Below, one piece after another: positions 27,574 through 56,336 of a stretch of 64,000 bases of DNA. This DNA is from Rhodococcus globerulus NBRC 14531 (GTDB taxonomy: Bacteria > Actinomycetota > Actinomycetes > Mycobacteriales > Mycobacteriaceae). A program made the position numbers and the translations under genes. Each line of letters begins with the position of its first letter. Position 1 is the first letter of the stretch. The notes beneath the pieces were generated by a model. The model was not told where the DNA came from. It saw only the letters and a list, made by a program, of their open reading frames with translations, and did not search any database. The stretch spans positions 186,001 to 250,000 of the forward strand of contig NZ_BCWX01000004.1 in NCBI RefSeq assembly GCF_001894805.1, in the 5' to 3' direction.

Positions 27574-28763
27574 TCTGCCTGCCCACGCAAGTAGCGGCCG
27601 AAGTGCGGCACCGTGAATCCGATCGAGCCGCGCTCCGCGGAGTAGATCAGTCCCTTCTTGATCAGCCCGTCACGCGCCGGCGACAACGACGCGGGCTTGC
27701 GTCCGAGTTCAACCGCGATCGCTGCCGTCGCCACCGGCCCGTCGTCACCGGACAGGTCTGCCATGGCACGCATGTACTCCCGCTCTGCCGGAGTTGCTCT
27801 CTCATACCGTGATCCGAAGAATCCGACCGCCAATTCCTCCTCGGCCGTCGGAGCACCCACCCGCACATCGTCTTTCGTGATCGGACTCGACGCGGCCACA
27901 TCCCACGTGGCTTTTCCGTAAGCCTGAACAAAATACGGGTAGCCGTCCGCCGCGTCGTACAGAGCGTCGAGCGCTGCGTCTGTGAACTCGACATCCTCAC
28001 GTGCGGCGGGTGCGATCAACGCCTGGTCTGCCGCATCACGTTCGAGTCGATCGATCCGGTGGTAGCTGAACAGCCGCTCCGAATAGCTTTTCGATGCCGA
28101 CAACACTGCAGGCAGGTGCGGAAGTCCCGCTCCGACCACGATCAAAGGTGCTGCGTCCTGACTCAATTCGTGGCAGGCCCCACAGATCGCCGATACGTCC
28201 GCTGCACCGAGGTCCTGCATCTCGTCGATGAAAATCGCGATACCGACACCGACGTCCCGCGCCAACGACGACGCATCCATCAGCAGTTCGACCAAGTCGA
28301 TTTCGATGTCGCCGCTGTCGGCCCGCCCCTTGAGCGCCGGGGCGTCAATACCTGGTTGCCACCGCTCACGCATCCCCTTGTCTGCCGTCGCCCGGAGCGC
28401 AAACGATTTCAGAACACCGAGAAACTGCTCGACCCGCTCAGGATCGCGATGCGAGACCGCAATCTCCCGGACGGCCATGTGCAGGGCCGACGACAGTGGG
28501 CGTCGTAGGTCTTGGTCGGGGCGAGCCTCGATCTTGCCCGTCCCCCAACTCTTCGAGATGGCCGCCGACCTGAGCTGGTTCAGCAGCACAGTCTTTCCCA
28601 CACCGCGGAGCCCGGTCAGGACAACACTGCGTTCGGGTCGACCGCGGGCAATGCGCTCGAGCACGACGTCGAACGCGTCTATCTGCTTGTCTCGACCGGC
28701 CAGTTCTGGCGGCCGTTGGCCGGCGCCAGGGGCATATGGATTGCGTACGGGGTCCATGCCCAT
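27570..28763 (-). CDS. AAA ATPase (ORC1/STAND-like)
   Basis: This 397-residue protein has a Walker A motif in TGLRGVGKTVLL near residue 54, a Walker B in IFIDEMQDL near 178, and a sensor in VVGAGLPHLP. The C-terminal part looks like a winged helix (GRKPASLSPARDGLIKKGLI). This is the layout of archaeal-like AAA ATPases found in actinomycetes; the biochemical role is unknown. Coupling to an M50 protease gene suggests a shared membrane-related function. The ATG two codons in (28757) is a possible alternative start. Confidence 0.82.
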   Translation of the reverse strand: MGMDPVRNPYAPGAGQRPPELAGRDKQIDAFDVVLERIARGRPERSVVLTGLRGVGKTVLLNQLRSAAISKSWGTGKIEARPDQDLRRPLSSALHMAVREIAVSHRDPERVEQFLGVLKSFALRATADKGMRERWQPGIDAPALKGRADSGDIEIDLVELLMDASSLARDVGVGIAIFIDEMQDLGAADVSAICGACHELSQDAAPLIVVGAGLPHLPAVLSASKSYSERLFSYHRIDRLERDAADQALIAPAAREDVEFTDAALDALYDAADGYPYFVQAYGKATWDVAASSPITKDDVRVGAPTAEEELAVGFFGSRYERATPAEREYMRAMADLSGDDGPVATAAIAVELGRKPASLSPARDGLIKKGLIYSAERGSIGFTVPHFGRYLRGQAE

Positions 28764-41766: not shown

Positions 41767-42551
41767 CCGAGTTTGCCGTTCACTGCCAGGACCTTCGGGT
41801 TGTCCTGGGCGGCAACAACGTTGTCGACGGCATCGGACTCGACGTTGCAGAGGGTGAATGGGTTGCTGTTGTGGGACCGAACGGCGCCGGGAAAACCACG
41901 CTGATGCATGCGCTCGCCGGGTTGATTCCGTCTGCCGGCCAACTCACCGTCTCCGGCCGTAACCCTCGAGATGCCGGTCGCAAAGCCATGTCTCAAGTTG
42001 TCGCGCTGATGCCACAACGGCCCGTGGTACCGGAGGGCGCAACAGTCAAAGAACTTGTCGCGCTCGGCCGAACTCCGTATCTACGACGCTTCGGCACGGA
42101 GACCGCCGCCGATCGCATGGTGATCAACAACGTCATTCAGCGCCTGGACCTCACTGAATTTGCCGATCGCCGGGCTACCGAACTGTCCGGCGGTGAATTG
42201 CAGCGAGTAGTGCTGGCCCGAGCGCTCGCGCAGGAACCGAAAGTGCTGCTCCTCGACGAGCCCACCAGCGCCCTCGACATCGGACACCAGCAGCAGGTCC
42301 TCGATCTTGTGGAGGCAATGCGCTTGTCGGACAACATCACCGTGATTGCCGCGATGCACGATCTCACTCTCGCGGGGCAGTACGGATCGCGCATCGTCTT
42401 GCTCGATCGGGGCCGCGTGGTGGCAGACGGATCACCGGCCGACGTTCTGCGTTCGGACCTCCTCAGCGAGATCTACGGCGCCCGCGTCGAGGTTCTCGAT
42501 CGACCGAGCGGACCCGTCGTGGTACCGATCCGGGAGCAGGACGGCCGCTGA
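41763..42551 (+). CDS. btuD: Cobalamin ABC transporter ATPase (BtuD-like)
   Basis: This 262-residue ATPase has Walker A GPNGAGKTT near residue 40, the signature LSGGELQRVVLARALAQ, Walker B LLLDEPTSALD and a switch His in MHDL. It belongs to the siderophore/B12 importer group. Coupled by four-base overlap to btuC and by one base to the next gene. Confidence 0.92.
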   Translation: MTEFAVHCQDLRVVLGGNNVVDGIGLDVAEGEWVAVVGPNGAGKTTLMHALAGLIPSAGQLTVSGRNPRDAGRKAMSQVVALMPQRPVVPEGATVKELVALGRTPYLRRFGTETAADRMVINNVIQRLDLTEFADRRATELSGGELQRVVLARALAQEPKVLLLDEPTSALDIGHQQQVLDLVEAMRLSDNITVIAAMHDLTLAGQYGSRIVLLDRGRVVADGSPADVLRSDLLSEIYGARVEVLDRPSGPVVVPIREQDGR

Positions 42552-43870
42552 TGGAACTGCTGATGCTGGGTACCGGCGCCGCCGACGGTTGGCCCAACCC
42601 CTTCTGCGAGTGCACATCCTGCACCGCCGCACTGGCAAGCGGCACGGTCCGAGGGCACACAGCGGCCCTGCTGGACAATCGAATCCTGCTCGACTGCGGC
42701 CCCGAAGTACCACGCGCCGCTTCGCGATCCGGCCGCACCCTTGCCGGAGTCGAACACATCCTGCTCACTCACTCGCATCCCGATCATCTCGGCCCGATGG
42801 CGCTGCTCTTCCGGTCATGGGCCGATCGCACCGAACCACTGCAGGTACTCGGACCTCCTGACGCCCTTGATCTCTGCCGCGACTGGGTGGGGCCACACGA
42901 CCCGGTCACCTTCACACCGCTTGTCGCTGGCCAATCGATCACACTGGGCACGTATGACGTTCGCGCTCTCGAAGCGACACATGAAGTTCCGACCCTGCTC
43001 TACGACATCACCGACAATGCCGGTGCCCGCGTCTTCTGGGCCACCGACACCGGGCCCCTCGCACCGTCGACAATCGCCGAGCTCGAGAACGCCTCGTTCG
43101 ACGCCCTTTTCCTCGAGGAAACCTTCGGATTCAAGACCGATCATGGCACCGGGCACCACGATCTGCCCAGCTTCGCCCGGACGGTCGCCACACTGCGCGA
43201 AATCGGCGCGGTCACAGACAGAACCGACATCGTGGCCGTCCACCTCGGCCACCACAACCCGCTCGCACACGAACTCTCGGCAGCACTAGAACAGTGCGGC
43301 GCACGAACCGTTCTCGACGGCACAGTGCTGCGCATCGGCTCCCGCGCGCCTGGCCGAACTCTGGTTACCGGTGGCGCCCGGGCGGGCAAGTCCACCTACG
43401 CCGAAGCATTACTGTCCGGATACCGGCACGTCACATACATCGCCACCGGAGATCCGCATGACGACGATCCCGACTGGACGGAAAGGGTAGCGTCACATCG
43501 CGCGCGGCGGCCGGCAACCTGGGCAACTCTCGAAACCGTCGATGTAATCGAAATACTCTCCGGCTCAACCGACCCCATCCTGCTCGACTGCCTAGGTACC
43601 TGGCTGACCGCACAGATGAATCGCCACGATGCCTGGCTGGACGGCAACACCGCTGCGGTTCGCGAAGACATCGATCAGTTGCTAGCTGCCTGGAAGTCCT
43701 GCCCTGTCCCGATCATTGCAGTCACCAATGAAGTCGGCAGTGGAGTTGTTCCGGAAACCAAGTCCGGTCGTCTCTTTCGGGACCTGCTCGGCCTACTGAA
43801 CGCACGCATCGCCGATGCGTCCGAGTCGGTTGTCCTGATGACCGCGGGACTACCCACCCGTCTACGCTGA
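42551..43870 (+). CDS. cobU: Metallo-beta-lactamase/CobU fusion protein
   Basis: This 439-residue protein has two domains. Residues 1 to about 265 form a metallo-beta-lactamase fold of the PhnP-like group (HSHPDHLG near residue 75, EETFGFKTDHGTGHHDL). From about residue 277 a CobU domain begins: GGARAGKST P-loop, SHRARRPATWATLE nucleotide-binding motif and LLDCLGTW. CobU is the adenosylcobinamide kinase/guanylyltransferase of B12 salvage. The fusion suggests the MBL domain trims or prepares a cobinamide intermediate; that is inference. It is the last gene of the B12 operon. Confidence 0.88.
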   Translation: MELLMLGTGAADGWPNPFCECTSCTAALASGTVRGHTAALLDNRILLDCGPEVPRAASRSGRTLAGVEHILLTHSHPDHLGPMALLFRSWADRTEPLQVLGPPDALDLCRDWVGPHDPVTFTPLVAGQSITLGTYDVRALEATHEVPTLLYDITDNAGARVFWATDTGPLAPSTIAELENASFDALFLEETFGFKTDHGTGHHDLPSFARTVATLREIGAVTDRTDIVAVHLGHHNPLAHELSAALEQCGARTVLDGTVLRIGSRAPGRTLVTGGARAGKSTYAEALLSGYRHVTYIATGDPHDDDPDWTERVASHRARRPATWATLETVDVIEILSGSTDPILLDCLGTWLTAQMNRHDAWLDGNTAAVREDIDQLLAAWKSCPVPIIAVTNEVGSGVVPETKSGRLFRDLLGLLNARIADASESVVLMTAGLPTRLR

Positions 43871-43874
43871 CATC

Positions 43875-44669
43875 TCAGATCAGCCCTGTGAGACGCCGCG
43901 CGCAATCGAGGAGAAAGCCCACCAACTCTCGGTCTTCCACAGTGACACGCTCGCACGAACCCTGGATACACAATCCGCCGGCGACCAGGTCGGCATGATC
44001 GCGAATGGGCACCGCTAACGCCGACCGCCCGAGCCGGGATTCCTGATTCTCGAACGCGAACCCCTGCAATCGAACCGAACGCAACTGCTCGGCCAGCATG
44101 GCACGATCATCGATCGTGAATTCGGTGAGTCGACGTAGTTCCAAATCGACAACGAGCCGCTCGTCGTAGGCCAACAGAAGTTTGCCCAGCGCATTTGCAT
44201 GGATGTTCTTCGAAAGCGTGGTTATCCCGATGATCTCGTGATCAGGGTCCTTGTCGATGAATCGGAGTCGCCCGGCGTTGAACGACGCAACATGCAATCC
44301 GTATCTCGTGTGGGTACGCATGTCTTCGACTTGTTCGTGCAGCGACGGCGCCGGGCCACTCGTTGTTGCGGCATGCGACAACTCAGCCGTCCGACGCCCC
44401 AACGCAAAGCCGGACAGGTCAGGTACCCGCACGAGAAAACCCTCTGCCACCAACAGATTCAGCATCCGATACGCCGTGGCCGATGGAACTCCCGCGAAAG
44501 TGGCGATCTCCTTCGCGGTTGTTCCCGGTCCCAGATGCGCAACCGCCTCGAGCATCCCGAGCGCTTTCTGAACCGCTTTGGGTTGCTGCCCGCTGAAGTG
44601 CGATTCGTCGCTGGTCCGTTTGCCGACTCTGGTGCCGGTGGTGGCGCGGTCGGCGCTCACTCGCCCCAC
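43875..44669 (-). CDS. IclR-family transcriptional regulator
   Basis: This 264-residue protein has an IclR winged helix (TTAKEIATFAGVPSATAYRMLNLLVAEGFLV in parts) and the effector domain with GLHVASFNAGRLRFID and ANALGKLLLAYD. An N-terminal extension of about 25 residues precedes the helix. It overlaps the upstream permease gene by 13 bases, so both are in one operon and the regulator probably controls the permease or the divergent amine dehydrogenase genes. Confidence 0.88.
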   Translation of the reverse strand: MGRVSADRATTGTRVGKRTSDESHFSGQQPKAVQKALGMLEAVAHLGPGTTAKEIATFAGVPSATAYRMLNLLVAEGFLVRVPDLSGFALGRRTAELSHAATTSGPAPSLHEQVEDMRTHTRYGLHVASFNAGRLRFIDKDPDHEIIGITTLSKNIHANALGKLLLAYDERLVVDLELRRLTEFTIDDRAMLAEQLRSVRLQGFAFENQESRLGRSALAVPIRDHADLVAGGLCIQGSCERVTVEDRELVGFLLDCARRLTGLI

Positions 44670-46195
44670 TCCGGTAGGTCGCGGTCTGCGGCAGAACGAT
44701 CCGGCACCAGGCGTCGTCGACCGTCGTCGCCGATAAGGAGTGTTCCGGCCCCAGGTAGGAGGTCCGCAGTTTCAAGGCTGTCGAAAGCTCCTACCGCCGT
44801 CAGACTCTCAGGCCGCACCCGCCGGAGAATTGCACTCCAGATCACTCCGGATGCAGCAAGCGCTCCAGCAGCACACGGCAGCGCCCAGATTCCGTGGACG
44901 GCACCGTCGAGAATGATGTACACAAGCAAACCGGCCCCGGCGACGCTGACCGACAACGTGCACACACGTGTCACCGCTGTGTGCTCGCCGATTCGGTTCA
45001 AGAACTTCCAGGACGCAAAGGCCACCAACGTGTACGCGCACACGAGGGCAATTTCCACCACTCCGTCGAAAGAGCCTGAATCATCTCTCACCGCATCGGA
45101 AAACAGAAGAACGCCGACTGTGCTGACGGAGACAAACGCGAGGACCGCAATGTAAGGGGTTCGGAATCGACGGTGCATCCGGGCGAGCGATGACGGCAGC
45201 GCCCGTTCGACGCCCATGGAGTACAACAACCTCGAACCCGCTTGCGCGCAGCCGAGAGTGCATGCCAGCCACGAGCACGTCATACCGACCTTGACCGCCA
45301 GAACTACCCCGGCACTGGCACCGGATGCCGTCCCCTGGAAGTACGCCCCGACGATGGTTGCGCCATGCCCCGTCATCGCCGCCCACGCTGCAAAGACGAA
45401 TAGTAGCCCGCAGATGATCGGCGAAATCAGCACTGTGCGTGTGACAGTGATCAACGGGCGCTTGGCCTCTGGACCGAAGAATGCTGCACTCTCGAATCCG
45501 GCCATACTCAGAACAGTCAGCATCGCCAGAAAAGGAACCACGCTCAAAGACTGATTCGGCAGTGACACAGTGCTTGTCGTATCGGTACGGGTTGCCAGCA
45601 TCACCGCGATGATCAAGATCAACGAACAGCTTTCGATCACCAGAATCGCGCGGGTCGCAAACCGAACTCCACGCACCGCTATCCACGCAACGGTGAGGGC
45701 GATCAGTACGGTCACCACTACCGTCGAAAGCGGCCCGCCTACATTGGTGCCGATGAGCGAAATCGTATCCAGCAGACTGGGAACCGCCTGGGCCAACACC
45801 GATATCGAGATCCCGAGATACCCGACGACCAACGCGGCTCCGACTAAAAGCGCACTTCGGGTTCCGGTACCTTGGAAGACAAAGCTGTAGAGCGAACCAG
45901 CCGCCGCCAGCCTGCGGGTGAAATGCGTGATGCAGAGCGCAACCAGAAAAACTGCCGACGTTGTCGCGGCGATGGCGGCCAAACCTGCGTACCCAGGGCT
46001 GTACGTGATCATCCACAATGCGATGAACACCATTCCCGTAGCCGGTGCGATGGTCGACAACGACTGTCCGAGAAGATCGATCGGCGTCAGCCGCCGCCGA
46101 CCCAGACCGCGCAACGGCGAGTACACCGGCTCGCCGTCCTGATCCGCACTCTGTGCCCGCGCGAGTGCCGCGCGCAACGCCGCCGTCACGGCCAT
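44657..46195 (-). CDS. APC-family amino acid/amine permease
   Basis: This 512-residue protein has about twelve hydrophobic segments and APC signatures: DLLGQSLSTIAPATGMVF, LAAAGSLYSFVFQGTG, and FESAAFFGPEAKRP. These transporters carry amino acids, polyamines or amines. It diverges from the amine dehydrogenase operon with 330 bases between, which makes amine import a reasonable guess, though not shown. Confidence 0.85.
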   Translation of the reverse strand: MAVTAALRAALARAQSADQDGEPVYSPLRGLGRRRLTPIDLLGQSLSTIAPATGMVFIALWMITYSPGYAGLAAIAATTSAVFLVALCITHFTRRLAAAGSLYSFVFQGTGTRSALLVGAALVVGYLGISISVLAQAVPSLLDTISLIGTNVGGPLSTVVVTVLIALTVAWIAVRGVRFATRAILVIESCSLILIIAVMLATRTDTTSTVSLPNQSLSVVPFLAMLTVLSMAGFESAAFFGPEAKRPLITVTRTVLISPIICGLLFVFAAWAAMTGHGATIVGAYFQGTASGASAGVVLAVKVGMTCSWLACTLGCAQAGSRLLYSMGVERALPSSLARMHRRFRTPYIAVLAFVSVSTVGVLLFSDAVRDDSGSFDGVVEIALVCAYTLVAFASWKFLNRIGEHTAVTRVCTLSVSVAGAGLLVYIILDGAVHGIWALPCAAGALAASGVIWSAILRRVRPESLTAVGAFDSLETADLLPGAGTLLIGDDGRRRLVPDRSAADRDLPEWGE

Positions 46196-46525: not shown

Positions 46526-47116
46526 ATGGACTTCACCATCGCTGCCGTATCGGCGATCATCGGGTTTGTCCTACTGCTCGCCGGCATCCCCAAGCTGACG
46601 GACTACGACGGTGTTCTGCGTTCGGTACGTGGATACAAAGTCCTTCCGAGCGGGCTCGAAGGACCGGTTGCCCGGGCACTTCCCATCGCCGAGACCGTGG
46701 CGGGCGCACTTCTCGTGACCGGCATCGCCCGGCAGTGGGCGGCCGGGGTTGCCGCACTCATGTTCGCGTCGTTCTTTGTCGGCCTTGTCGTCAACCTTGC
46801 TCGCGGCCGACGCGACCTCGACTGTGGTTGCTTCGCATTCGGCATCGGCGAGATCCCGCGTATCGGATGGTTCCACGCGGTACGTGCCGGAATCCTTGCC
46901 GCTGCGTCACTCTCCATCCTGGCAATCGGCAGCTCCGCGGGCGCGGGCGCGCAAGCAACAGCTGCCACCCTCGCACTCCTCCTGGTGCTGGGCGGCGTCG
47001 CCATCGCACAGATCCGATCCGTCGTTCATTTCGGCAAGCGCCCCGTCGACGACTACCTCTCGAGTGCTTCCGTCCGACTGCGTGCCGCCGGCGCCACGTC
47101 TCGGTACGGCGTTTGA
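46526..47116 (+). CDS. mauE: MauE-like membrane protein of TTQ amine dehydrogenase maturation
   Basis: This 196-residue protein has four to five hydrophobic segments and the DLDCGCFAFG motif between them, matching MauE/DoxX-related proteins. In methylamine users MauE and MauD are needed to form the many disulfides of the MauA light chain. GGGAGGA lies six bases before the ATG. It is the first gene of the operon. Confidence 0.85.
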   Translation: MDFTIAAVSAIIGFVLLLAGIPKLTDYDGVLRSVRGYKVLPSGLEGPVARALPIAETVAGALLVTGIARQWAAGVAALMFASFFVGLVVNLARGRRDLDCGCFAFGIGEIPRIGWFHAVRAGILAAASLSILAIGSSAGAGAQATAATLALLLVLGGVAIAQIRSVVHFGKRPVDDYLSSASVRLRAAGATSRYGV

Positions 47117-47159
47117 CCTTCTCCCTATTCACCGACTGCGCAAAGGCAGGACTTCGACG

Positions 47160-47768
47160 ATGACTACTTTTCTACTCGTAGCGACCGTGATTCTCGTGAT
47201 CGCCGTGGCCGTACTGTTCTTGATGGTTCTCGCTCTCGCCCGTGAAATCGGCCGTGTGCAGGTGCGTCTCGGACCACTCGGTGCCCGAATGATGGATACC
47301 GGTCCCAAGGTCGAACAGGTTGGGCCGTCGTTTGCCGGTTTGATCGACCAGGAAGGTCGAACCGTCGGAGTTGGTGGTCATCGAGACAAGGCTCAGCTCC
47401 TGCTGTTCACAGCACCGAGTTGCTCGACCTGCAAGAGCCTGCTTCCCGGCGTGCGGGCAATGGCCCGAGCCGAATCCGACCTCGACGTTGTCATCATCTC
47501 CGACGGAACCCCCGAGGAACACCGAGAGTTCTTGGCCGGCAGCGGCATCGGTCCCGAGCTCAGCTACATCGACGCTCGTGACGTCGGCATCGCCTACCAG
47601 GTGGGCACCACTCCGTACGGCGTGATTCTCGACGAGCACGGCAAGATTCGCGGCAAGGGCCTGTGCAACCACATGGCTCAGGTCGAGAGCCTGCTCAACG
47701 CACTCGAGTCCGGCACCCCCTCACTCCAGCACCTTCATGCGCAGGCTAAGTCGGGCAGCGCGGCCTGA
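47160..47768 (+). CDS. mauD: MauD-like membrane-anchored thioredoxin
   Basis: This 202-residue protein has an N-terminal membrane anchor (residues 4-26) and a thioredoxin domain with the CSTC motif at residues 88-91 and a cis-proline in GTTPYG. It is the expected disulfide-forming or isomerising partner for the cysteine-rich light chain two genes on. It follows mauE by 43 bases. Confidence 0.87.
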   Translation: MTTFLLVATVILVIAVAVLFLMVLALAREIGRVQVRLGPLGARMMDTGPKVEQVGPSFAGLIDQEGRTVGVGGHRDKAQLLLFTAPSCSTCKSLLPGVRAMARAESDLDVVIISDGTPEEHREFLAGSGIGPELSYIDARDVGIAYQVGTTPYGVILDEHGKIRGKGLCNHMAQVESLLNALESGTPSLQHLHAQAKSGSAA

Positions 47769-47815
47769 TCACCCTGAGTTCTGCTCGTTCCTCTTCACGA
47801 ATCAGGAGAAATTTG

Positions 47816-48517
47816 TTGGACGACAATGCGTTTCCACAGCACAACATGACAGAGAACCGATATCCGGTAGACGAGGCAACCGTTCAAGCGCAGGCCGAAT
47901 GGATGGCAGGCCAAGGTGGTTCACTGACCAGCCGCACCGGCCGCAAGCTCTCCGAACGCGTCTCGCGGCGGTCGATGATCAGCCGAATCGGCAAGTGGAC
48001 CATGGGAGTATCCGGCGTAGCGCTGATCAGCACCTTGCCCGTCACTCGTACCGCGTTTGCTCAAGAAGCCGCGCCTCCCGCTCCGGCACCGGGCCCGGAA
48101 CCGCTTGTTCCCGTGTACGACGGCAAGGATCCCGCGGAATGTGAATACTGGCGCTGGTGCAACATGGACGGCACATCCTGCGCTGCCTGCAACGGCGGCG
48201 GTGTCACCACGTGCGCGCCCGGCAGTAAGCCAGGCGCCGAGTTCTGGGTTGGCTGCTGCACCAATCCCGATACCGGAAAGACCTATCTGATCGCGTACTA
48301 CGACTGCTGCGGTGCGCCTTCGTGTTCCAACGCCTTCTGCGGCGAGCCGGACATGCAGGCAGTGATGTACAACCCGGTTTCCGGCAGCTACGACCAGGAA
48401 ATCATCTGGTGTGTCTCCGACGAATCGCAGGCGTACACCTGCACCATGGCTCCCATCATCGGTGAGGACTGCCAGACCCGTCCGGCTGCACGCCCCAAGG
48501 TCGGTGCCGGATCATGA
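47816..48517 (+). CDS. mauA: TTQ amine dehydrogenase light chain (MauA-like)
   Basis: The 233-residue precursor has a Tat-type leader (SRRSMISRIGKWTMG, residues 50-64, cleaved near FAQEA) and a cysteine-rich domain with 14 cysteines. Aligned with the Paracoccus enzyme, the two tryptophans that form TTQ are W144 (EFWVGCC) and W198 (EIIWCV), and the catalytic aspartates are D118 (NMDG) and D163 (AYYDCCG). All are present, so the cofactor can be made. The TTG at 47816 has AGGAG seven bases upstream; a TTG one codon earlier and an ATG at 47846 are alternatives. The stop overlaps the next gene by four bases. Confidence 0.92.
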   Translation: MDDNAFPQHNMTENRYPVDEATVQAQAEWMAGQGGSLTSRTGRKLSERVSRRSMISRIGKWTMGVSGVALISTLPVTRTAFAQEAAPPAPAPGPEPLVPVYDGKDPAECEYWRWCNMDGTSCAACNGGGVTTCAPGSKPGAEFWVGCCTNPDTGKTYLIAYYDCCGAPSCSNAFCGEPDMQAVMYNPVSGSYDQEIIWCVSDESQAYTCTMAPIIGEDCQTRPAARPKVGAGS

Positions 48518-49854
48518 GCAGTTCACGAATCCGAAAGCTCGCCCGTCCCGCCGTCGCAATACTGCCTCTCACCGTTGTGCTCGCACTGGCTGGTTGCAGT
48601 TCGTCCGACAACGACGAACCTTCCAGCGCAGGTGATGTCACCTATCCCACCGTCCCGTTCACCGCTCCTGGTGATGGCATTTCGCTCGGTCACGACGATC
48701 AGGAAATCGGCGACACCATTCCCGAACCCCTGCACGTCGGGTCGATCGTTCCGATTGCCGCTGACCGACTCCTCGGCGTCGAGGGTGGCTTCGGTCAGCT
48801 CGAACTCAGCGTCAACGTCATCGATCCGAAAACCGGTGTGGCCGAGAGCCGTATCACCGTCGGACCCGGTATCTGGGATCCTGTCATCCACGGATTTGTC
48901 GGGGACTCCGCCGATGACCCAGCAGTACTCGCCGCCGAAGTGTGGCGTCCCCGAGGTTCGCGCGGGGCAGCCGATTTCACGGTCAGCACCTACTCCGGCA
49001 ACCTGTTGGAGCCGGCCGAGGTCATGCTGCCGGATGTCGCACGCGTGCATTCGCGTCCCGGCTCCAATGCCGTCACCTCCGACGGCAAGTTCTTTGTCAC
49101 TTGGGACGACGGCTTGTACGGCATCCGTGTTGTCGACTTGGAGAAGCAGGAGGCGACCGGCGCCCTCCAGATCGTCGGATGTGGACCGTTCACCTGGATG
49201 GTCGGACACGAGCTCTACAGCGTGTGCGAGGACACCCGTGAGCTGCTTCAAGTCACAATCAGCGACGACGGAGTCCCCACCGAGACCGCCCGATCCAAGG
49301 TCTTGCCCGACGATTTCGTCTCCACTCGCAAGGTGACGTGGGCGGCCGACGCACAGAACGCGTTGTTGGTCAGCGAGAACGGTGACGTCTTCGTCTTCGA
49401 CTTCTCGAACGGACTACCCAAGGAAGCCGTCAAGCCCATCGGAAATGCGGGCCAGGATTCCGGACGCTTCTCCGAGAACCTCATCAATGCGGATGCAACG
49501 CGTCTGGCAATCGAATACACCGACAGCGCAATTCACCCGGACTCCGCTCGCGGTGGTTCGATCGTGAAGATCGATCTCTTCGACGCGGCTACGTTCGCCC
49601 CGATCAAGAGTCTTTCTCTGGCCGACCTCGGCCTCACCGATATCGGAAGCACCGCCTTCTCAGTTGACGGTGCAACGTTCTACGTGCTCGGCACCGGACC
49701 GGAGGTAGAAGGCTCCGCTCCGGAGGTAGAAGGCTCCGCTCCGCAGAAGATCGTGGGCTACAACGCAACCACCGGTGAGCAGGTCAGTTCCGTGGATATC
49801 TCGGGCAATGTCGGTGATGTCACCGGGTTGATCACACCAGAAGTACTTCGATGA
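48514..49854 (+). CDS. mauB: Amine dehydrogenase heavy-chain-like lipoprotein
   Basis: This 446-residue protein sits where the heavy chain of methylamine/aralkylamine dehydrogenase would be. It has a lipoprotein leader (ALAGC) and repeated beta-propeller-like strands such as LLGVEGGFGQLELSVNVIDPKTG, FVTWDDGLYGIRVVDLEK and ALLVSENGDVFVFDF (in parts). Known heavy chains are soluble periplasmic proteins; a lipid anchor would hold the complex on the outer face of the Gram-positive membrane. A seven-codon tandem duplication lies near residues 396-409. Family assignment rests on context and fold, so it is less certain than the light chain. Confidence 0.72.
   Translation: MSSSRIRKLARPAVAILPLTVVLALAGCSSSDNDEPSSAGDVTYPTVPFTAPGDGISLGHDDQEIGDTIPEPLHVGSIVPIAADRLLGVEGGFGQLELSVNVIDPKTGVAESRITVGPGIWDPVIHGFVGDSADDPAVLAAEVWRPRGSRGAADFTVSTYSGNLLEPAEVMLPDVARVHSRPGSNAVTSDGKFFVTWDDGLYGIRVVDLEKQEATGALQIVGCGPFTWMVGHELYSVCEDTRELLQVTISDDGVPTETARSKVLPDDFVSTRKVTWAADAQNALLVSENGDVFVFDFSNGLPKEAVKPIGNAGQDSGRFSENLINADATRLAIEYTDSAIHPDSARGGSIVKIDLFDAATFAPIKSLSLADLGLTDIGSTAFSVDGATFYVLGTGPEVEGSAPEVEGSAPQKIVGYNATTGEQVSSVDISGNVGDVTGLITPEVLR
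49699..49740 (+). repeat. Perfect tandem duplication of 21 bp in the heavy-chain gene
   Basis: CCGGAGGTAGAAGGCTCCGC plus one T occurs twice in a row (49699-49719 and 49720-49740). It adds seven residues, PEVEGSA, in frame in a surface loop. Copy number could vary between strains. Confidence 0.95.
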
Positions 49855-51440
49855 GTCGTCCCGGATCCGGTGTAGTGATGGGCCGGCGCCGCTTCCTGAG
49901 TCTGGGAGCACTCGGCGCCGGGGCAATCGGGCTCGGCGCCGTGGGAACGATCGCCGGATGCAGTTCCACTGCAGCAACTCCGACGCCGCTGACCGATCTC
50001 GACTTCATCATGCCCACCGACCCCGAAGTTGCTGCTGCAGAGTCGGCACGAGCCTGGAACGGAACCACCGCCGCGTTTGCCTTGGCAGCCGGATTCTCGA
50101 CGGTTGATCTCGGCGGACGCCTCGTGGACACATGGACGTACGGTGGCGCTGCTGTCGCTCCGGAACTTCGGCTGAAATCCGGTGACCGGGTGAACGTCTC
50201 CGTCCAGAACAACCTCGATGCCGAAACCACGCTGCACTGGCACGGAATTCGAATCCGCAACGACATGGACGGCGCGGCACCAACCACGCAGGCTCCCATC
50301 GCGGCGGCTTCGACCTTCGACTACAACTTCGTCGCCCCGGATCCGGGAACGTACTGGTACCACTCGCACAGCGGACTACAGGCAGACCGCGGACTCTTCG
50401 GCGCCATGATCGTCGAGGACCCGAACGACTCCAGTGGGGCCGACGCCGATGCCGTTCTGGTACTCGACGACTGGGTCGACGGATTGGGTACCACACCGGA
50501 TTCCATACTGATGGCACTCAATCCGGCAATTGCCGGCGGCCACGGCGGCCACGGCGGAGCCGCATCAACACCCGTTGAGCACGCCGAGGGTGACATGGCA
50601 GTTGCGCAGCAGTTGGTGAGCGCCGGCCATGGTTCGTCCGAGCCTTTGGGCGGCATGACACAACACATCGCGTATCCATTGCACTTGATCAACGGGCGAC
50701 CGCCCAACGATCCAGCTGTGGTGACCGCTGCGCCCGGTTCGACTCTGCGACTACGAATCATCAACGCGGCGGCCGAAACTCCGTACCGGTTTGCCGTGGC
50801 CGGGCACGAGATGACGATCGTAGCCACCGATGGCTTCGACGTGGAGCCGACTCCCGCCGACGCCATCATCGTCGGAATGGCGCAGCGCTACGACGTACTC
50901 GTGACGGTCAAGTCGGGAACATGGCCGGTGGTCGCCAAGGTCGAGGGCCGCGACGGATACGCGTCGACCCTCCTTCGCAGCACCGACGCGTTGGCACTCT
51001 CGAATCCGGATGTGGGTGGTGTGATCTCGGAGTTGGGCGGCCGTTTGGTGCTCGAAAGCGCTCTCCGTCCCGCGGAATCCACACGCCTCGAGACGAAGTC
51101 ACCCGATCGCGACTACCACATCGAGTTGATCCAAGCCGGAGATCGTTACGTGTGGGGTATGGCCGGTGCCGATGCGGGCAAACTCGTGATGAAACAGGGT
51201 GAACGCGTTCGGATTACGATGAAGAACACGTCCACCATGTGGCATCCCATGCACACTCACGGCCACACCTTTGCGGTACCGGATTACGGCGGGCTTCGCC
51301 GTGACACCGTCAACGTGCTACCAGGCAGCGAACTCGCCATCGAGTTCGATGCCGACAACCCCGGCGAGTGGATGTTCCACTGCCACAATGCCTACCACTT
51401 CGAAGCCGGAATGACGGCAAATCTGCGTTACGTCCGCTGA
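49851..51440 (+). CDS. Multicopper oxidase, Tat/lipobox-exported
   Basis: This 529-residue oxidase has GRRRFLSLG followed by the lipobox IAGC (C37), and all four copper motifs: HWH at 129-131, HSH at 171-173, HPMHTHGH at 465-472 and HCHNAYHFEAGM at 510-521. The Met there fits a type-1 copper axial ligand. A His/Gly-rich loop (GGHGGHGG) sits near residue 230. It overlaps the heavy-chain gene by four bases. It could be the terminal oxidase of the amine chain or take part in TTQ formation; both are inference. Confidence 0.9.
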   Translation: MSRPGSGVVMGRRRFLSLGALGAGAIGLGAVGTIAGCSSTAATPTPLTDLDFIMPTDPEVAAAESARAWNGTTAAFALAAGFSTVDLGGRLVDTWTYGGAAVAPELRLKSGDRVNVSVQNNLDAETTLHWHGIRIRNDMDGAAPTTQAPIAAASTFDYNFVAPDPGTYWYHSHSGLQADRGLFGAMIVEDPNDSSGADADAVLVLDDWVDGLGTTPDSILMALNPAIAGGHGGHGGAASTPVEHAEGDMAVAQQLVSAGHGSSEPLGGMTQHIAYPLHLINGRPPNDPAVVTAAPGSTLRLRIINAAAETPYRFAVAGHEMTIVATDGFDVEPTPADAIIVGMAQRYDVLVTVKSGTWPVVAKVEGRDGYASTLLRSTDALALSNPDVGGVISELGGRLVLESALRPAESTRLETKSPDRDYHIELIQAGDRYVWGMAGADAGKLVMKQGERVRITMKNTSTMWHPMHTHGHTFAVPDYGGLRRDTVNVLPGSELAIEFDADNPGEWMFHCHNAYHFEAGMTANLRYVR

Positions 51441-51468
51441 CAAGTAAGAAGAATCGAGAGGACCTCTC

Positions 51469-51813
51469 ATGAAGAAGCTCGTTCCCGCTTTCCTCGCCGC
51501 TTGTGCGGCTTTGAGTCTCACCGCATGCAGCAGCGACAGTTCGGTGTCGGACGAACCCGCCGTCGTGATCGAGGTGAAGAACATGGCCTACACACCGGCG
51601 TCGGTCACCATCGAAAAGGGCCAGACCGTCGAGTGGAAGTTCGACGACGGCGGACTCCCCCACGACGTGGTCGGTAACGGTGAACTCGAAGGGAAACTGA
51701 AGAGCGAGTTGCTCACCGAGGGAACCTTCTCGTTCACGTTCGACGACGCCGGTACCTTCACCTACCACTGCACGCCCCATCCGATGATGGTCGGCACCGT
51801 GATCGTTCAATAG
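51469..51813 (+). CDS. Amicyanin-like cupredoxin lipoprotein 1
   Basis: This 114-residue protein has a lipobox (LTAC) and a type-1 copper domain with H65, C101, H104 and M107. The CTPHPMM loop nearly equals the CTPHPFM loop of amicyanin, the electron acceptor of methylamine dehydrogenase. GAGAGGA lies before the ATG. It follows the oxidase by 28 bases and overlaps the second cupredoxin by one base. Confidence 0.9.
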   Translation: MKKLVPAFLAACAALSLTACSSDSSVSDEPAVVIEVKNMAYTPASVTIEKGQTVEWKFDDGGLPHDVVGNGELEGKLKSELLTEGTFSFTFDDAGTFTYHCTPHPMMVGTVIVQ

Positions 51814-52136
51814 TGAGGAGGTGGATCGCCGGCTTCAGCCTTGCCGTCGCGGCAACGTGTGTTCCCGCGTGCGGCACAGAAGGTCCCGCCCCCGACGTCG
51901 TGGTCGAGATCAGCAATGTTCAGTTCAGTCCGATGGACGTCACCGTTGAACATGGCGGCACCGTCGAGTGGCGTTTCGACGACGGCGGACTTCTGCATCA
52001 TGTGGAATCACCCGGACTGTTCGACAGTGGCATCACCGGAGATGGCACCTTCCGGCACACGTTCGAGAGCGCCGGCGTCTACGAGTACTCGTGCTCCGTG
52101 CACCCGTACATGATCGGAGTCATCACAGTGTTGTGA
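51813..52136 (+). CDS. Amicyanin-like cupredoxin 2
   Basis: This 107-residue protein has a signal peptide with a possible lipobox (VPAC) and copper ligands H62, C94, H97 and M100 (CSVHPYM). It resembles the preceding cupredoxin over VEHGGTVEWRFDDGGL, so the two arose by tandem duplication. The GTG start overlaps the previous stop by one base (TAGTG). Confidence 0.87.
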   Translation: MRRWIAGFSLAVAATCVPACGTEGPAPDVVVEISNVQFSPMDVTVEHGGTVEWRFDDGGLLHHVESPGLFDSGITGDGTFRHTFESAGVYEYSCSVHPYMIGVITVL

Positions 52137-52184
52137 CTACTGGCTCATCATTTTTCGTGAACTACATACATTTTGGAGGATCTG

Positions 52185-53021
52185 ATGACTACCGTTCTCT
52201 CACACGGCCCACTCCAGACCGATGTCCCTGACATTCGGCCGACCCTTCAAGGCTCAGTCGGCACGGCTACTCGCGCCAGCCTCATCGCCGCAGGTGCTGC
52301 GGCGGGTGCCGGCATTGCACTCGTGGCTGCGCCTTCTGCGACAACAGCTTTGACCACTGCGGTTGTCGGAGCCGGACTGGTCACCTCACTGGCCGCCAAC
52401 TGGTCGACCTGCGGAATGTCGGTTGCCGGAGTTGTTGCCGCACCGAAGCAAGCCGACCGTAAGGGATCGTCAACTCCGGTACGCCGACTCGGTTGGCATG
52501 CACTGGGTTCCGTCACGACAGGTGCCGTCACCGGCGCCCTGATCGGCGCTCTCGGCGCGGCGGTGTCCGGTTTCATTCCGATCGGCTGGGCGTTGGGTGC
52601 CTGGGCTGTTGTGGCACTTGCGTACGGTCTGCACGAGTTGGGTGTTCTCACGATGCCGACTCCGATGCGGCGCCAACAGCTTCCGCGCCATATGCGCCGC
52701 ACCATGGCGCCGTGGAAGGTCTCACTGATCTTCGGCGCTATCATCGGGCCCGGATTCCTGATCTTCATCCGCTCGAGTGCGTACTACCTCCTTGCACTCG
52801 GTGTTATCGCCTCGGGCTCAACGGCTCTCGGCGCTGCACTGTTCACCGTTGTCTCCCTCGGCCGCTGCATGCCTAGCCTCGCGGCAATCGTGCACACCAA
52901 TCGCGGTGGCTCGATGCCCGGTTTCCTCTCGGTCATGTGCGTCGTAGACCGTCGGGTGCAGAGCATCACGGGCGCCGCACTGATCGCACTGGGAGCATTT
53001 GCTGCTTTCGCGTTGGTCTGA
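52185..53021 (+). CDS. Polytopic membrane protein of the amine dehydrogenase operon (MauF position)
   Basis: This 278-residue protein has about six to seven hydrophobic segments and cysteines in NWSTCGMSVAG near residue 75 and near the C-terminus. In classical mau operons a membrane protein of this size, MauF, is essential for the enzyme, and this gene sits at the operon's end with GGAGGA before its ATG. I could not confirm homology with MauF, so that name is a suggestion. A hairpin follows. Confidence 0.75.
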   Translation: MTTVLSHGPLQTDVPDIRPTLQGSVGTATRASLIAAGAAAGAGIALVAAPSATTALTTAVVGAGLVTSLAANWSTCGMSVAGVVAAPKQADRKGSSTPVRRLGWHALGSVTTGAVTGALIGALGAAVSGFIPIGWALGAWAVVALAYGLHELGVLTMPTPMRRQQLPRHMRRTMAPWKVSLIFGAIIGPGFLIFIRSSAYYLLALGVIASGSTALGAALFTVVSLGRCMPSLAAIVHTNRGGSMPGFLSVMCVVDRRVQSITGAALIALGAFAAFALV

Positions 53022-54728: not shown

Positions 54729-55556
54729 CTAGAGCTGACCACCCGCGTCGACGGTATGCGTGGTTCCCGTGACATAGCGTCCGCTGTCTCCGACGAGGTA
54801 GAGCACTGCGTCGGTGATGTCGGATGATTCGAGCGCGGGCACCGGCAGGGTGTTGAGTGTCAATGCGGCTTCCTCGAAGTCAGCGCGTGTCGGCGCGGCG
54901 AGGTCCGGCCGGAAGAGCTTGTAGGTGGCGTCGTTGAGGATCATGTCGGTTGCCACGGTGGTGGGATGGATGGTGTTGACTCGGATATTCTGCGGCGCAA
55001 GTTCTTTGGCGAGCACCTTCATGAACCCGACCAGACCTGCCTTAGCCGCTGAGTAATGCGCGGTATTCGCGTTCGCTTTCAGAGCGGCGAGTGAGCTCGT
55101 GATCACCACGGAGCCACCCCGACTACCCGCGACAATATGCGGCACCGAAGCGACGCAGGTCTTCCACACTCCGGTGAGATTGATGTCGATCATCGTCGAC
55201 CAGGTTTCCTCGGACATCTCGAGCGTCGGAGCAGGCACCGAGATACCGGCATTGGCGAGCACGATGTCGAGCCGGCCGAGCTCATCGACACCGGCGTCGA
55301 CCACTACTTTCAAGCCGTCGAGGTCCCGGACGTCGACTTCGCGGGCAACAATGCGACGACCGAGGGCTTTGACCGCACGCTCGGTTTCCGCGAGGTCGTC
55401 CGCCGTGGCGGTCGGATACGGCACTGTGTCGACCTGGCGACATACGTCTATCGCGATGATGTCGGCTCCTTCTTGCGCGAGCCGTAGCGCATGGCTGCGC
55501 CCCTGGCCCCGTGCAGCACCGGTGACGAATGCAACTTGACCGTCGAATTGCCCCAT
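54729..55556 (-). CDS. Mycofactocin-coupled short-chain dehydrogenase
   Basis: This 275-residue SDR has GAARGQGRSHALRLA, VPYPTATADDLAET, an NAG motif, a catalytic Ser in ITSSLAA and YSAAK, which place it in the mycofactocin-coupled group like the gene at 565. I chose the ATG at 55556 with AAAGG upstream. It is divergent from a TetR gene. Confidence 0.88.
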   Translation of the reverse strand: MGQFDGQVAFVTGAARGQGRSHALRLAQEGADIIAIDVCRQVDTVPYPTATADDLAETERAVKALGRRIVAREVDVRDLDGLKVVVDAGVDELGRLDIVLANAGISVPAPTLEMSEETWSTMIDINLTGVWKTCVASVPHIVAGSRGGSVVITSSLAALKANANTAHYSAAKAGLVGFMKVLAKELAPQNIRVNTIHPTTVATDMILNDATYKLFRPDLAAPTRADFEEAALTLNTLPVPALESSDITDAVLYLVGDSGRYVTGTTHTVDAGGQL

Positions 55557-55635
55557 GACAGAAAACCTTTCGGCACATGTGGCACCGACCTTCAGCGGTG
55601 CCGCGTCGTACAACCGAGGTTATGTCAGTCGATGC

Positions 55636-55652
55636 CAAAACATGGCGTTTTG
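55636..55652. promoter_or_regulatory. Candidate TetR operator between the dehydrogenase and tetR genes
   Basis: CAAAAC and GTTTTG flank five bases in the divergent promoter. A second, longer-spaced repeat, GGCACCG and CGGTGCC with 8 bases between, lies at 55581-55602, close to the dehydrogenase start. Either could bind the TetR protein. Confidence 0.45.
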
Positions 55653-55742
55653 AGAAAACTCACCGCCCGGGCGATACGGGTAACCCGCCCAAGCCCGAAG
55701 GCCGACGCCATGGCCGGGCGAACCTGGAACGATGGACGCGTG

Positions 55743-56336
55743 ATGAGTACCGACAACCGAATCGACCGCGGTGGCAGGCCGGCGGCAACAACCGCGCACC
55801 ACCTCGCCGCCGTCGCCCAGAGACTGTTCGTCGAACGCGGCTTCGACCGAACCAACGTCGAGGACATCGCGCACGAAGCGGGAATCAGCACTCGAACCTT
55901 CTTCCGATACTTCCCGACCAAGGCCGACGTCCTGTGGGTCGAATCGGACGCCGAGATCAGTCGGCTACGACAAGCACTGGCCGACAGCACCGCGACCGAA
56001 CCGTACGAAGCCGTCTTGGTGCGCGCCGTAGTCACCGCCATGGCTTTCCCCGACGACCAGATCGAATGGGCCAGACACCGCGCCCAACTGGTCCTTACGG
56101 AACCCGCCGTGCAAGCGCAGGCATCGCAGCGCCACACGCGGTGGCGAGCCGCTGCCACCGAATTCGTCAGCGCTCGCACCCCCGACTATTTCTTCCCGAT
56201 TGCGGTGGGACACGCAGTACTCGCCGCCACACAATCGGCCCACGAGTACTGGATCGCGCATCCAGAGACGCAACTCGCCGATCAGCTCGAACGTGCACTG
56301 CTCCTGCTCCTCCCACCCCTACCCACAGCGGTCTAG
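55743..56336 (+). CDS. TetR-family regulator, MftR-like
   Basis: This 197-residue protein has the TetR helix-turn-helix NVEDIAHEAGISTRTFFRYF near residue 40, preceded by RPAATTAHHLAAVAQRLFVERGF. The FFRYFPTKADVLW motif is shared with regulators linked to mycofactocin systems, in keeping with its divergent mycofactocin-coupled dehydrogenase. In-frame starts at 55710 and 55743 are both possible. Confidence 0.85.
   Translation: MSTDNRIDRGGRPAATTAHHLAAVAQRLFVERGFDRTNVEDIAHEAGISTRTFFRYFPTKADVLWVESDAEISRLRQALADSTATEPYEAVLVRAVVTAMAFPDDQIEWARHRAQLVLTEPAVQAQASQRHTRWRAAATEFVSARTPDYFFPIAVGHAVLAATQSAHEYWIAHPETQLADQLERALLLLLPPLPTAV

What the first reader, a model, noticed from the sequence alone, without database searches (positions are those of the whole stretch)
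46526..53021. TTQ amine dehydrogenase operon in an actinomycete with no MauG
Seen: MauE-like, MauD-like, a light chain with all TTQ and catalytic residues, a heavy-chain candidate, a multicopper oxidase, two cupredoxins and a membrane protein, with close spacing and overlaps. Established: in Paracoccus and Methylobacterium the TTQ cross-link and oxygenation are completed by the dihaem protein MauG. No protein in this operon or its flanks has a CxxCH haem motif. Inference: TTQ is completed by another route here, the multicopper oxidase being the obvious candidate, or by a distant MauG.
Basis: partly seen in the sequence, partly recalled or inferred. Interest (0 to 1): 0.88.

Follow-up and report, generated by a model that had tools for sequence, protein, structure and literature searches.

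The report
MauG-free TTQ amine dehydrogenase with copper relay
A soil actinomycete carries genes for an amine-oxidising enzyme whose active centre is built from two of its own tryptophans, but seems to lack the iron enzyme known to finish that centre and has a copper oxidase beside it instead, so the centre is probably finished, and probably also re-oxidised, in a different way.

Summary
Window 46526-53021 is an eight-gene operon: MauE, MauD, TTQ light chain, heavy chain, multicopper oxidase (MCO), two cupredoxins, and a membrane protein that proves to be a MauF homologue. The heavy chain is MauB/AauB-like by profile and fold; TTQ tryptophans and catalytic residues are conserved. No MauG-type gene was found in this 99.98%-complete genome, in 37 other genomes with related loci, or in 301 genomes drawn from the family. 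So a 'distant MauG' is excluded as far as profiles reach, and MauG-independent TTQ completion is the natural inference. In the family draw 42 of 43 genomes with a light chain have the MCO, and none has it without. But MCO as TTQ maker is only one reading. Planctomonas deserti keeps the operon with intact TTQ residues, without MauG and without this MCO. A related MCO-cupredoxin pair sits in a substrate-binding-protein/ABC cluster lacking TTQ genes. And the MCO stands where some other clusters keep the electron acceptor. I favour a copper relay, TTQ to cupredoxin to MCO to O2, with MauG-free maturation; a dual or dedicated maturation role stays open. New variant of a known kind.

The parts
46526..47116 (+). 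MauE-like membrane protein (MauE/DoxX family), CxC motif C100/C102
   Evidence: PF07291 92.2 bits, cut-off 27
47160..47768 (+). MauD-like thioredoxin-fold accessory protein, CxxC C88/C91
   Evidence: TIGR02661 160 bits, below equivalog cut-off 188.6; start read from sequence
47813..48517 (+). TTQ light chain precursor with SRR leader; TTQ W134/W188, D108, D153, T200 counted from ATG 47846; 14 Cys
   Evidence: PF02975 110 bits; PDB matches MADH/AADH light chains; residues mapped; Cys positions
48514..49854 (+). Heavy chain, MauB/AauB-type propeller homologue, lipobox-like Cys28
   Evidence: hhalign E 1.5e-12; AlphaFold model pLDDT 77.5; Foldseek ranks 1-25 all MADH/AADH heavy chains
49851..51440 (+). 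Three-domain multicopper oxidase, RR leader with lipobox-like Cys37
   Evidence: PF07732/PF07731/PF00394; copper ligands invariant in 18 sequences
51469..51813 (+). Cupredoxin 1 (amicyanin/plastocyanin-like), lipobox-like Cys20, Cu motif CTPHPMM
   Evidence: PF00127 51.1 bits; TIGR02657 amicyanin 53.8 bits, below cut-off 110.2
51813..52136 (+). Cupredoxin 2 (GTG start), lipobox-like Cys20, Cu motif CSVHPYM
   Evidence: PF13473 27.2 bits, cut-off 27
52185..53021 (+). MauF homologue, helical membrane protein (motif WSTCGMS; WSPCGYS in MauF)
   Evidence: hhalign with MauF 99.3%, E 1.3e-20; alignments A3/A4; helical model
44657..46195 (-). Divergent amino-acid/amine-type permease, conserved neighbour, possible substrate importer
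   Evidence: TIGR00909 46.6 bits, far below its cut-off; no Pfam hit; tblastn match in 30 of 37 loci
43875..44669 (-). IclR-family regulator next to the permease
   Evidence: PF01614 and PF09339 over cut-off; conserved neighbour

Best explanation
The operon makes an extracytoplasmic TTQ amine dehydrogenase (light plus heavy chain). MauE/MauD and MauF prepare and fold the disulfide-rich light chain. TTQ is completed without the dihaem enzyme MauG. In each turnover electrons pass from reduced TTQ to a membrane-anchored cupredoxin and then to the membrane-anchored MCO, which reduces O2 to water. The MCO is thus mainly the oxidising end of a copper relay that replaces cytochrome c. The same relay may also withdraw electrons while TTQ is being completed, but the MCO is not strictly indispensable for that. 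Shown: gene content, homologies, residue conservation, no MauG found, co-occurrence, one MCO-less relative. Inferred: that TTQ forms, electron flow, lipid anchoring, role of MCO, MauE, MauD and MauF.
For: TTQ enzyme: W134, D108 and D153 in 38 of 38 light chains, W188 and T200 in 37 of 38. Heavy chain by profile and fold. MauF and MauE homologues. No MauG: 0 of 1, 0 of 37, 0 of 301 (a family draw whose listed handles agree with those, where 43 hold a light chain). MCO coupling: of 43 family genomes with a light chain 42 have the MCO at 54% identity or more, 41 of them with the two genes' 5' ends 1.96-2.44 kb apart on one contig; none of the 258 others has such an MCO. Heavy chain and MCO genes overlap by 4 bp in 28 of 34 loci with both. 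In 4 of the 6 annotated proteobacterial clusters read, the gene after the light chain is an electron acceptor: amicyanin in L001 and L069, cytochrome c in L002 and L072; in L070 it is mauJ, in L003 a hypothetical gene. A two-haem QcrC-like frame is the only over-cut-off Cytochrome_CBB3 protein in each of 6 genomes, so no soluble cytochrome c of that kind is evident. Planctomonas has the operon with TTQ residues and one cupredoxin but no MCO in it; NG86 dN, dS to Microbacterium L034 are 0.14, 0.67 for the light chain. A related MCO followed by a cupredoxin sits in a substrate-binding-protein/ABC cluster 6 kb from the operon in R. erythropolis.
Against: No direct evidence that electrons go to the MCO. 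Strict linkage of MCO and light chain in the family fits a maturation enzyme equally well. Planctomonas keeps one other MCO of a different, distant kind (68.2 bits to PF07732; 31% over the C-terminal part), which could stand in for either role. Its other operon genes are less constrained in the same pairwise test (dN, dS: heavy chain 0.38, 0.88; cupredoxin 0.33, 0.79; MauE 0.40, 0.86). The light chain scores below the MADH equivalog cut-off (120.4 against 196.85). A cupredoxin could instead feed the aa3 oxidase.
Confidence: 0.45

Rival explanations
1. The MCO is the TTQ maturation enzyme that replaces MauG: its type 1 copper draws electrons from the mono-hydroxylated tryptophan, driving cross-link, second oxygenation and oxidation to quinone.
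For: MCO present in 42 of 43 family genomes with a light chain and, at 54% identity or more, in none of the 258 without it; no MauG found; 4-bp gene overlaps; laccase-type copper ligands intact. First hydroxylation in the CTQ enzyme LodA is described as apparently copper-dependent (PMC7876137, passages).
Against: Planctomonas L036 has no operon MCO, nor a close one elsewhere, yet intact TTQ residues; its light chain groups with those of MCO-bearing Microbacteriaceae, which suggests a loss of MCO without loss of the enzyme genes (supports only partly printed). A related MCO plus cupredoxin occurs in a cluster without TTQ genes.
Confidence: 0.25
2. TTQ is completed by an unlinked or unrecognised enzyme (for example a flavoprotein, as for CTQ) or by metal-assisted self-processing aided by MauF; the MCO has nothing to do with maturation.
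For: MauE, MauD, MauF and one cupredoxin are what the MCO-less Planctomonas operon keeps beside the two subunits. [quoted passage not shown] aau-type clusters have no mauG or mauF annotated nearby.
Against: No candidate gene identified. A whole-genome search for such enzymes was not made.
Confidence: 0.2
3. The light chain no longer forms TTQ; the genes are a degenerate or repurposed pair.
For: Below the MADH equivalog cut-off; no known TTQ maturase found in the genome; two extra cysteines C137/C209.
Against: TTQ and catalytic residues kept in the 38 light chains, the one exception fitting a frame-broken draft; dN well below dS for the light chain in one pairwise test; complete accessory set apart from MauG.
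Confidence: 0.06
4. A MauG-type dihaem enzyme exists but escaped detection (assembly gap or extreme divergence).
For: M. infernorum has a mauBEDA operon with an unlinked MauG homologue (PMC2474590, passages). The completeness of the 37 genomes is not given, and some are MAGs or drafts.
Against: 0 of 38 genomes with the operon or its light chain and 0 of 301 family genomes match PF03150; the same search rings in 2 of 14 control genomes; P. denitrificans MauG finds itself at E 3.9e-267 and at most 18.7 bits in the 11 actinobacterial genomes tested.
Confidence: 0.04

Closest known systems
mau cluster / methylamine dehydrogenase of Paracoccus and Methylobacterium (L001, L069)
   Same: Light chain with TTQ residues, propeller heavy chain, MauE, MauD, MauF, an amicyanin-like cupredoxin
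   Different: No MauG found in the genome; no MauJ or NapGH-like gene in the operon; adds an MCO and a second cupredoxin; gene order E-D-A-B-MCO-Cu-Cu-F instead of F-B-E-D-A-C-J-G
aau-type cluster / aromatic amine dehydrogenase (L002 Cupriavidus, L003 Novosphingobium, L072 Haematobacter)
   Same: BEDA core without a mauG annotated nearby; heavy chain's best PDB sequence matches are AADH (E 0.005)
   Different: aau-type clusters read here lack an annotated MauF and have cytochromes c or a hypothetical gene after the light chain; here cupredoxins and an MCO
Quinohaemoprotein amine dehydrogenase (qhp), LodA/GoxA: CTQ enzymes matured by flavoproteins
   Same: Precedent for a tryptophylquinone made without MauG (PMC7876137, passages)
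   Different: CTQ, different proteins, no flavoprotein in this operon
CopA/laccase-type three-domain multicopper oxidases
   Same: Domains and copper ligands; best NCBIfam TIGR01480 255.2 bits, below its cut-off of 478.95
   Different: In the family draw tied to TTQ light chains; no close solved structure by sequence (best E 3.2e-40, FET3)

Membership tests
TTQ amine dehydrogenase (MADH/AADH superfamily) | Light chain PF02975 with both TTQ tryptophans and catalytic Asp/Thr | tested here: met
   PF02975 110 bits; residues in 37-38 of 38
TTQ amine dehydrogenase (MADH/AADH superfamily) | Propeller heavy chain of MauB/AauB type | tested here: met
   hhalign E 1.5e-12; Foldseek ranks 1-25
TTQ amine dehydrogenase (MADH/AADH superfamily) | TTQ actually present | not testable with these tools
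   needs mass spectrometry or absorbance
Methylamine dehydrogenase (NCBIfam equivalog TIGR02659) | Score over equivalog cut-off | tested here: not met
   120.4 bits against 196.85; substrate therefore not claimed
mau cluster | MauF present | tested here: met
   hhalign 99.3%, E 1.3e-20
mau cluster | MauG present in cluster or genome | tested here: not met
Amicyanin | Score over TIGR02657 cut-off | tested here: not met
   53.8 and 28.3 bits against 110.2; Cu motif present
Multicopper oxidase | Copper-ligand motifs | tested here: met
   H129, H131, H171, H173, H465, H468, H470, H510, C511, H512, H516, M521 invariant in 18 sequences; ligand roles recalled

The most novel reading that the evidence does not exclude
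A laccase-like multicopper oxidase completes TTQ on the light chain, so TTQ biogenesis has a copper solution in actinomycetes as well as the dihaem solution of proteobacteria, perhaps with the same oxidase later serving as the enzyme's terminal electron acceptor.
Probability: 0.25. Interest if true: 0.85.

Novelty: new variant of a known kind. Interest (0 to 1): 0.62.

Why it matters
How TTQ is made is known in detail for MauG (recall and passages). Here is an actinobacterial branch of TTQ enzymes, in several genera, in which no MauG is found, so either a second chemistry completes the cofactor or MauG's role is less general than assumed. The branch supplies its own natural experiment (MCO-bearing against MCO-less Planctomonas), and the operon is small enough to test gene by gene in a laboratory Rhodococcus. 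If the MCO is the electron sink, the set is also a self-contained O2-linked amine oxidation system that needs no cytochrome c.

Tried and rejected
Distant MauG: rejected by PF03150 over G000, 37 genomes with related loci and 301 family genomes, and by P. denitrificans MauG as query (the four best actinobacterial scores are 13.8-18.7 bits in frames with stops, the rest 13 bits or less).

MCO as universal partner: rejected as strictly universal because of L036. Contig ends were considered: L037 and L039 end inside or just after the heavy chain and cannot tell; the MCO of L037's genome lies at another contig's start. So 34 of the 35 informative loci, of 37, have the MCO in the locus.

MCO as exclusive to TTQ: not settled. 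In the MCO tree thirteen database sequences at 49-58% identity (P0115, P0117, P0118, P0120, P0124-P0129, P0131, P0134, P0135) form a group between TTQ-linked ones; none shares its listed contig length with a light chain, but the contigs could not be read.

A haem protein at 28184: CxxCH is in a P-loop ATPase-like protein. Function of MauF from fold: AlphaFold model pLDDT 78.8, but Foldseek gave nothing at E 0.001 or better, so no inference. Substrate: not resolved; the permease hit is weak. One proteobacterial cluster fetched (L071) carries no annotation and was not used. Several paper searches returned mostly noise.
Full report
What is there. The window lies in a 6.73-Mb, 99.98%-complete genome; the nearest loci with named organisms are Rhodococcus, including R. 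erythropolis and R. qingshengii (light chain 98% identical). Eight genes on the + strand run from 46526 to 53021 with short gaps and 1-4 bp overlaps: mauE-like, mauD-like, light chain, heavy chain, multicopper oxidase (MCO), cupredoxin 1, cupredoxin 2 and a membrane protein. A divergent permease and an IclR regulator lie upstream; the permease has a match in 30 of 37 relatives' loci, some of the others being cut by contig ends.

The enzyme. The light chain matches PF02975 and solved MADH/AADH light chains. Aligned with P. denitrificans MauA and two other proteobacterial light chains, the window chain and the 37 related loci (38 sequences) keep W134, D108 and D153 in 38 of 38 and W188 and T200 in 37 of 38; T200 is Ser in the two other proteobacterial chains. 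The exception fits L039, a draft whose frame is broken there (its genome shows two overlapping pieces). By recall these residues correspond to beta-Trp57, Asp32, Asp76, Trp108 and Thr122 of MADH. Eleven of the twelve MauA cysteines align with cysteines of the window chain and for one the nearest cysteine lies three residues off (C160); two extra cysteines (C137, C209) are invariant in a 16-sequence alignment, perhaps a seventh disulfide (inference). The heavy chain has no significant Pfam match, but its profile matches MauB/AauB over 298 columns (97.7%, E 1.5e-12), its best solved sequence relatives are AADH heavy chains (E 0.005), and its model (pLDDT 77.5) hits MADH/AADH heavy chains in Foldseek ranks 1-25. 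The light chain misses the MADH equivalog cut-off, so I call it a TTQ amine dehydrogenase of unknown substrate. It is rare: over cut-off in 1 of 396 genomes drawn from the phylum, the window's own.

Accessory genes. Annotated mau clusters L001 and L069 have MauF and MauG, and L070 has MauF and an annotated cytochrome c peroxidase. aau-type clusters L002, L003 and L072 have neither MauF nor MauG annotated nearby; their whole genomes were not searched. The actinobacterial operon is thus a third arrangement: MauF without MauG.

No MauG found. PF03150 finds nothing in G000, nothing in 37 genomes holding the related loci (completeness not given) and nothing in 301 genomes of the family, while it rings in two of 14 control genomes. 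P. denitrificans MauG finds itself at E 3.9e-267 and in the 11 actinobacterial genomes tested only scraps of at most 18.7 bits. In six genomes tested with Cytochrome_CBB3 the only over-cut-off protein is one frame of 273-308 residues with two matches; in G000 and Planctomonas, the two read, it carries two CxxCH and a C-terminal hydrophobic segment, as QcrC does (QcrC named from recall). Unlinked MauG is known elsewhere (Methylacidiphilum, PMC2474590, passages). That MauG makes TTQ in preMADH, and that CTQ enzymes use flavoproteins, with an initial hydroxylation thought autocatalytic in MADH and LodA/GoxA and apparently copper-dependent in LodA, I take from passages of PMC6405878 and PMC7876137.

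The MCO. It has three Cu-oxidase domains and intact copper ligands. In the family draw, light chain was found in 43 of 301 genomes and this MCO (54% identity or more, the 62-63% paralogue set aside) in 42; all 42 have the light chain, 41 of them with 5' ends 1.96-2.44 kb apart on the same contig, one (G985) with the genes on different contigs of a draft. The one light chain without it (G1046) is in a 75%-complete draft; the matching locus L039 is a 3.0-kb contig ending shortly after the heavy chain. The MCO list was cut at about 1e-100, far below the gap between 54% and 47% identity. In the 37 loci, 34 have the MCO, two contigs end too early, one (L036) lacks it. Heavy chain and MCO overlap by 4 bp in 28 of 34, with starts chosen mechanically. 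Against exclusiveness, thirteen database MCOs at 49-58% identity group among TTQ-linked ones without such a match; their surroundings are unknown.

The exception. Planctomonas deserti (L036, 574-kb contig) has mauE-mauD-light chain-heavy chain, then after 94 bp a cupredoxin and mauF: no MCO and only one cupredoxin. Its genome has no close MCO; the single PF07732 protein is a different one on another contig (I would call it CotA-like from its sequence, not from a scan). Its light chain keeps all TTQ residues. NG86 dN, dS to Microbacterium L034 are 0.14, 0.67 for light chain, 0.19, 0.94 for MauF, 0.13, 0.90 for MauD, but 0.38, 0.88 for heavy chain, 0.33, 0.79 for cupredoxin 1 and 0.40, 0.86 for MauE; this is one pair, and does not isolate the Planctomonas branch. 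In the light-chain tree it sits in a group that includes MCO-bearing L034 and P0012 (supports printed only for the inner nodes, 0.65-0.75, and 0.999 for the pair L036/P0023; P0012's MCO is inferred from the shared organism and contig length of P0092), so the MCO was probably lost while the dehydrogenase stayed. A search of 398 genomes of its family found no other light chain.

The MCO elsewhere. R. erythropolis NBRC 15567 (G004), Rhodococcus sp. P-2 (G005) and one further genome (G1053) carry a second MCO, 62-63% identical, and only one light chain each (G917 and G904 show the places of G004 and G005). In G004 it lies 6.3 kb from the operon MCO, between a PF01497 substrate-binding protein and two ABC transporter genes, and is followed by a cupredoxin frame with a CTPHPNM copper motif at about 14108-14452 of L067. 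In the MCO tree (FastTree, midpoint rooted) it nests inside the TTQ-linked group. So an MCO-cupredoxin pair of this kind occurs in another setting too.

How it most likely works. The redox proteins carry export or lipobox-like signals (read from sequence, no predictor): RR leaders in light chain and MCO, lipobox-like cysteines in heavy chain, MCO and both cupredoxins. I infer a membrane-anchored relay: amine to TTQ, TTQ to cupredoxin, cupredoxin to MCO, MCO to O2. The MCO follows the structural genes, the slot in which amicyanin or cytochrome c stands in 4 of the 6 annotated proteobacterial clusters read; six genomes with the operon show no soluble cytochrome c of the searched type; and the one MCO-less relative keeps the cupredoxin. 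Maturation is MauG-free by inference; whether the MCO, MauF, bare copper or an unlinked enzyme does it is open. A maturation role of the MCO is chemically reasonable (inference) and has nearly the same support from co-occurrence; Planctomonas is the main evidence against it being obligatory.

Print status. I found no paper on an actinobacterial TTQ operon or MauG-free TTQ among the listings, which search a CC-licensed PMC library; subscription papers are not covered. Databases already name several of these light chains 'methylamine dehydrogenase light chain'.

Noticed in passing
L067:11531-17996 (R. erythropolis NBRC 15567): A second MCO, 62-63% identical, followed by a cupredoxin, between a PF01497 substrate-binding protein and two ABC transporter genes, about 6 kb from the TTQ operon; no such second copy in the window genome.
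   Followed up: partly
47846-48517 (C137, C209): Two extra cysteines, invariant in 16 actinobacterial-type light chains, one three residues after the first TTQ tryptophan; possible seventh disulfide.
   Followed up: partly
54729-55613 and 55491-56333: Mycofactocin-coupled SDR (TIGR03971, 388 bits, over cut-off) beside an MftR-like TetR regulator (166.6 bits, below cut-off) just downstream of the operon.
   Followed up: no
42551-43870: Fusion of a metallo-beta-lactamase-fold domain with CobU, next to an ABC transporter ATPase gene.
   Followed up: no
L033 (Kineococcus): Rearranged operon with a divergent mauF-like gene (42%) between light and heavy chain genes; the reading chosen mechanically held a stop.
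   Followed up: no
49699-49740: Tandem repeat PEVEGSA-PEVEGSA in the heavy chain, not doubled in the other 17 aligned sequences.
   Followed up: no
L032 (Actinacidiphila): Has the MCO but only about 73 bp between cupredoxin 1 and mauF, so cupredoxin 2 seems to be missing there.
   Followed up: partly
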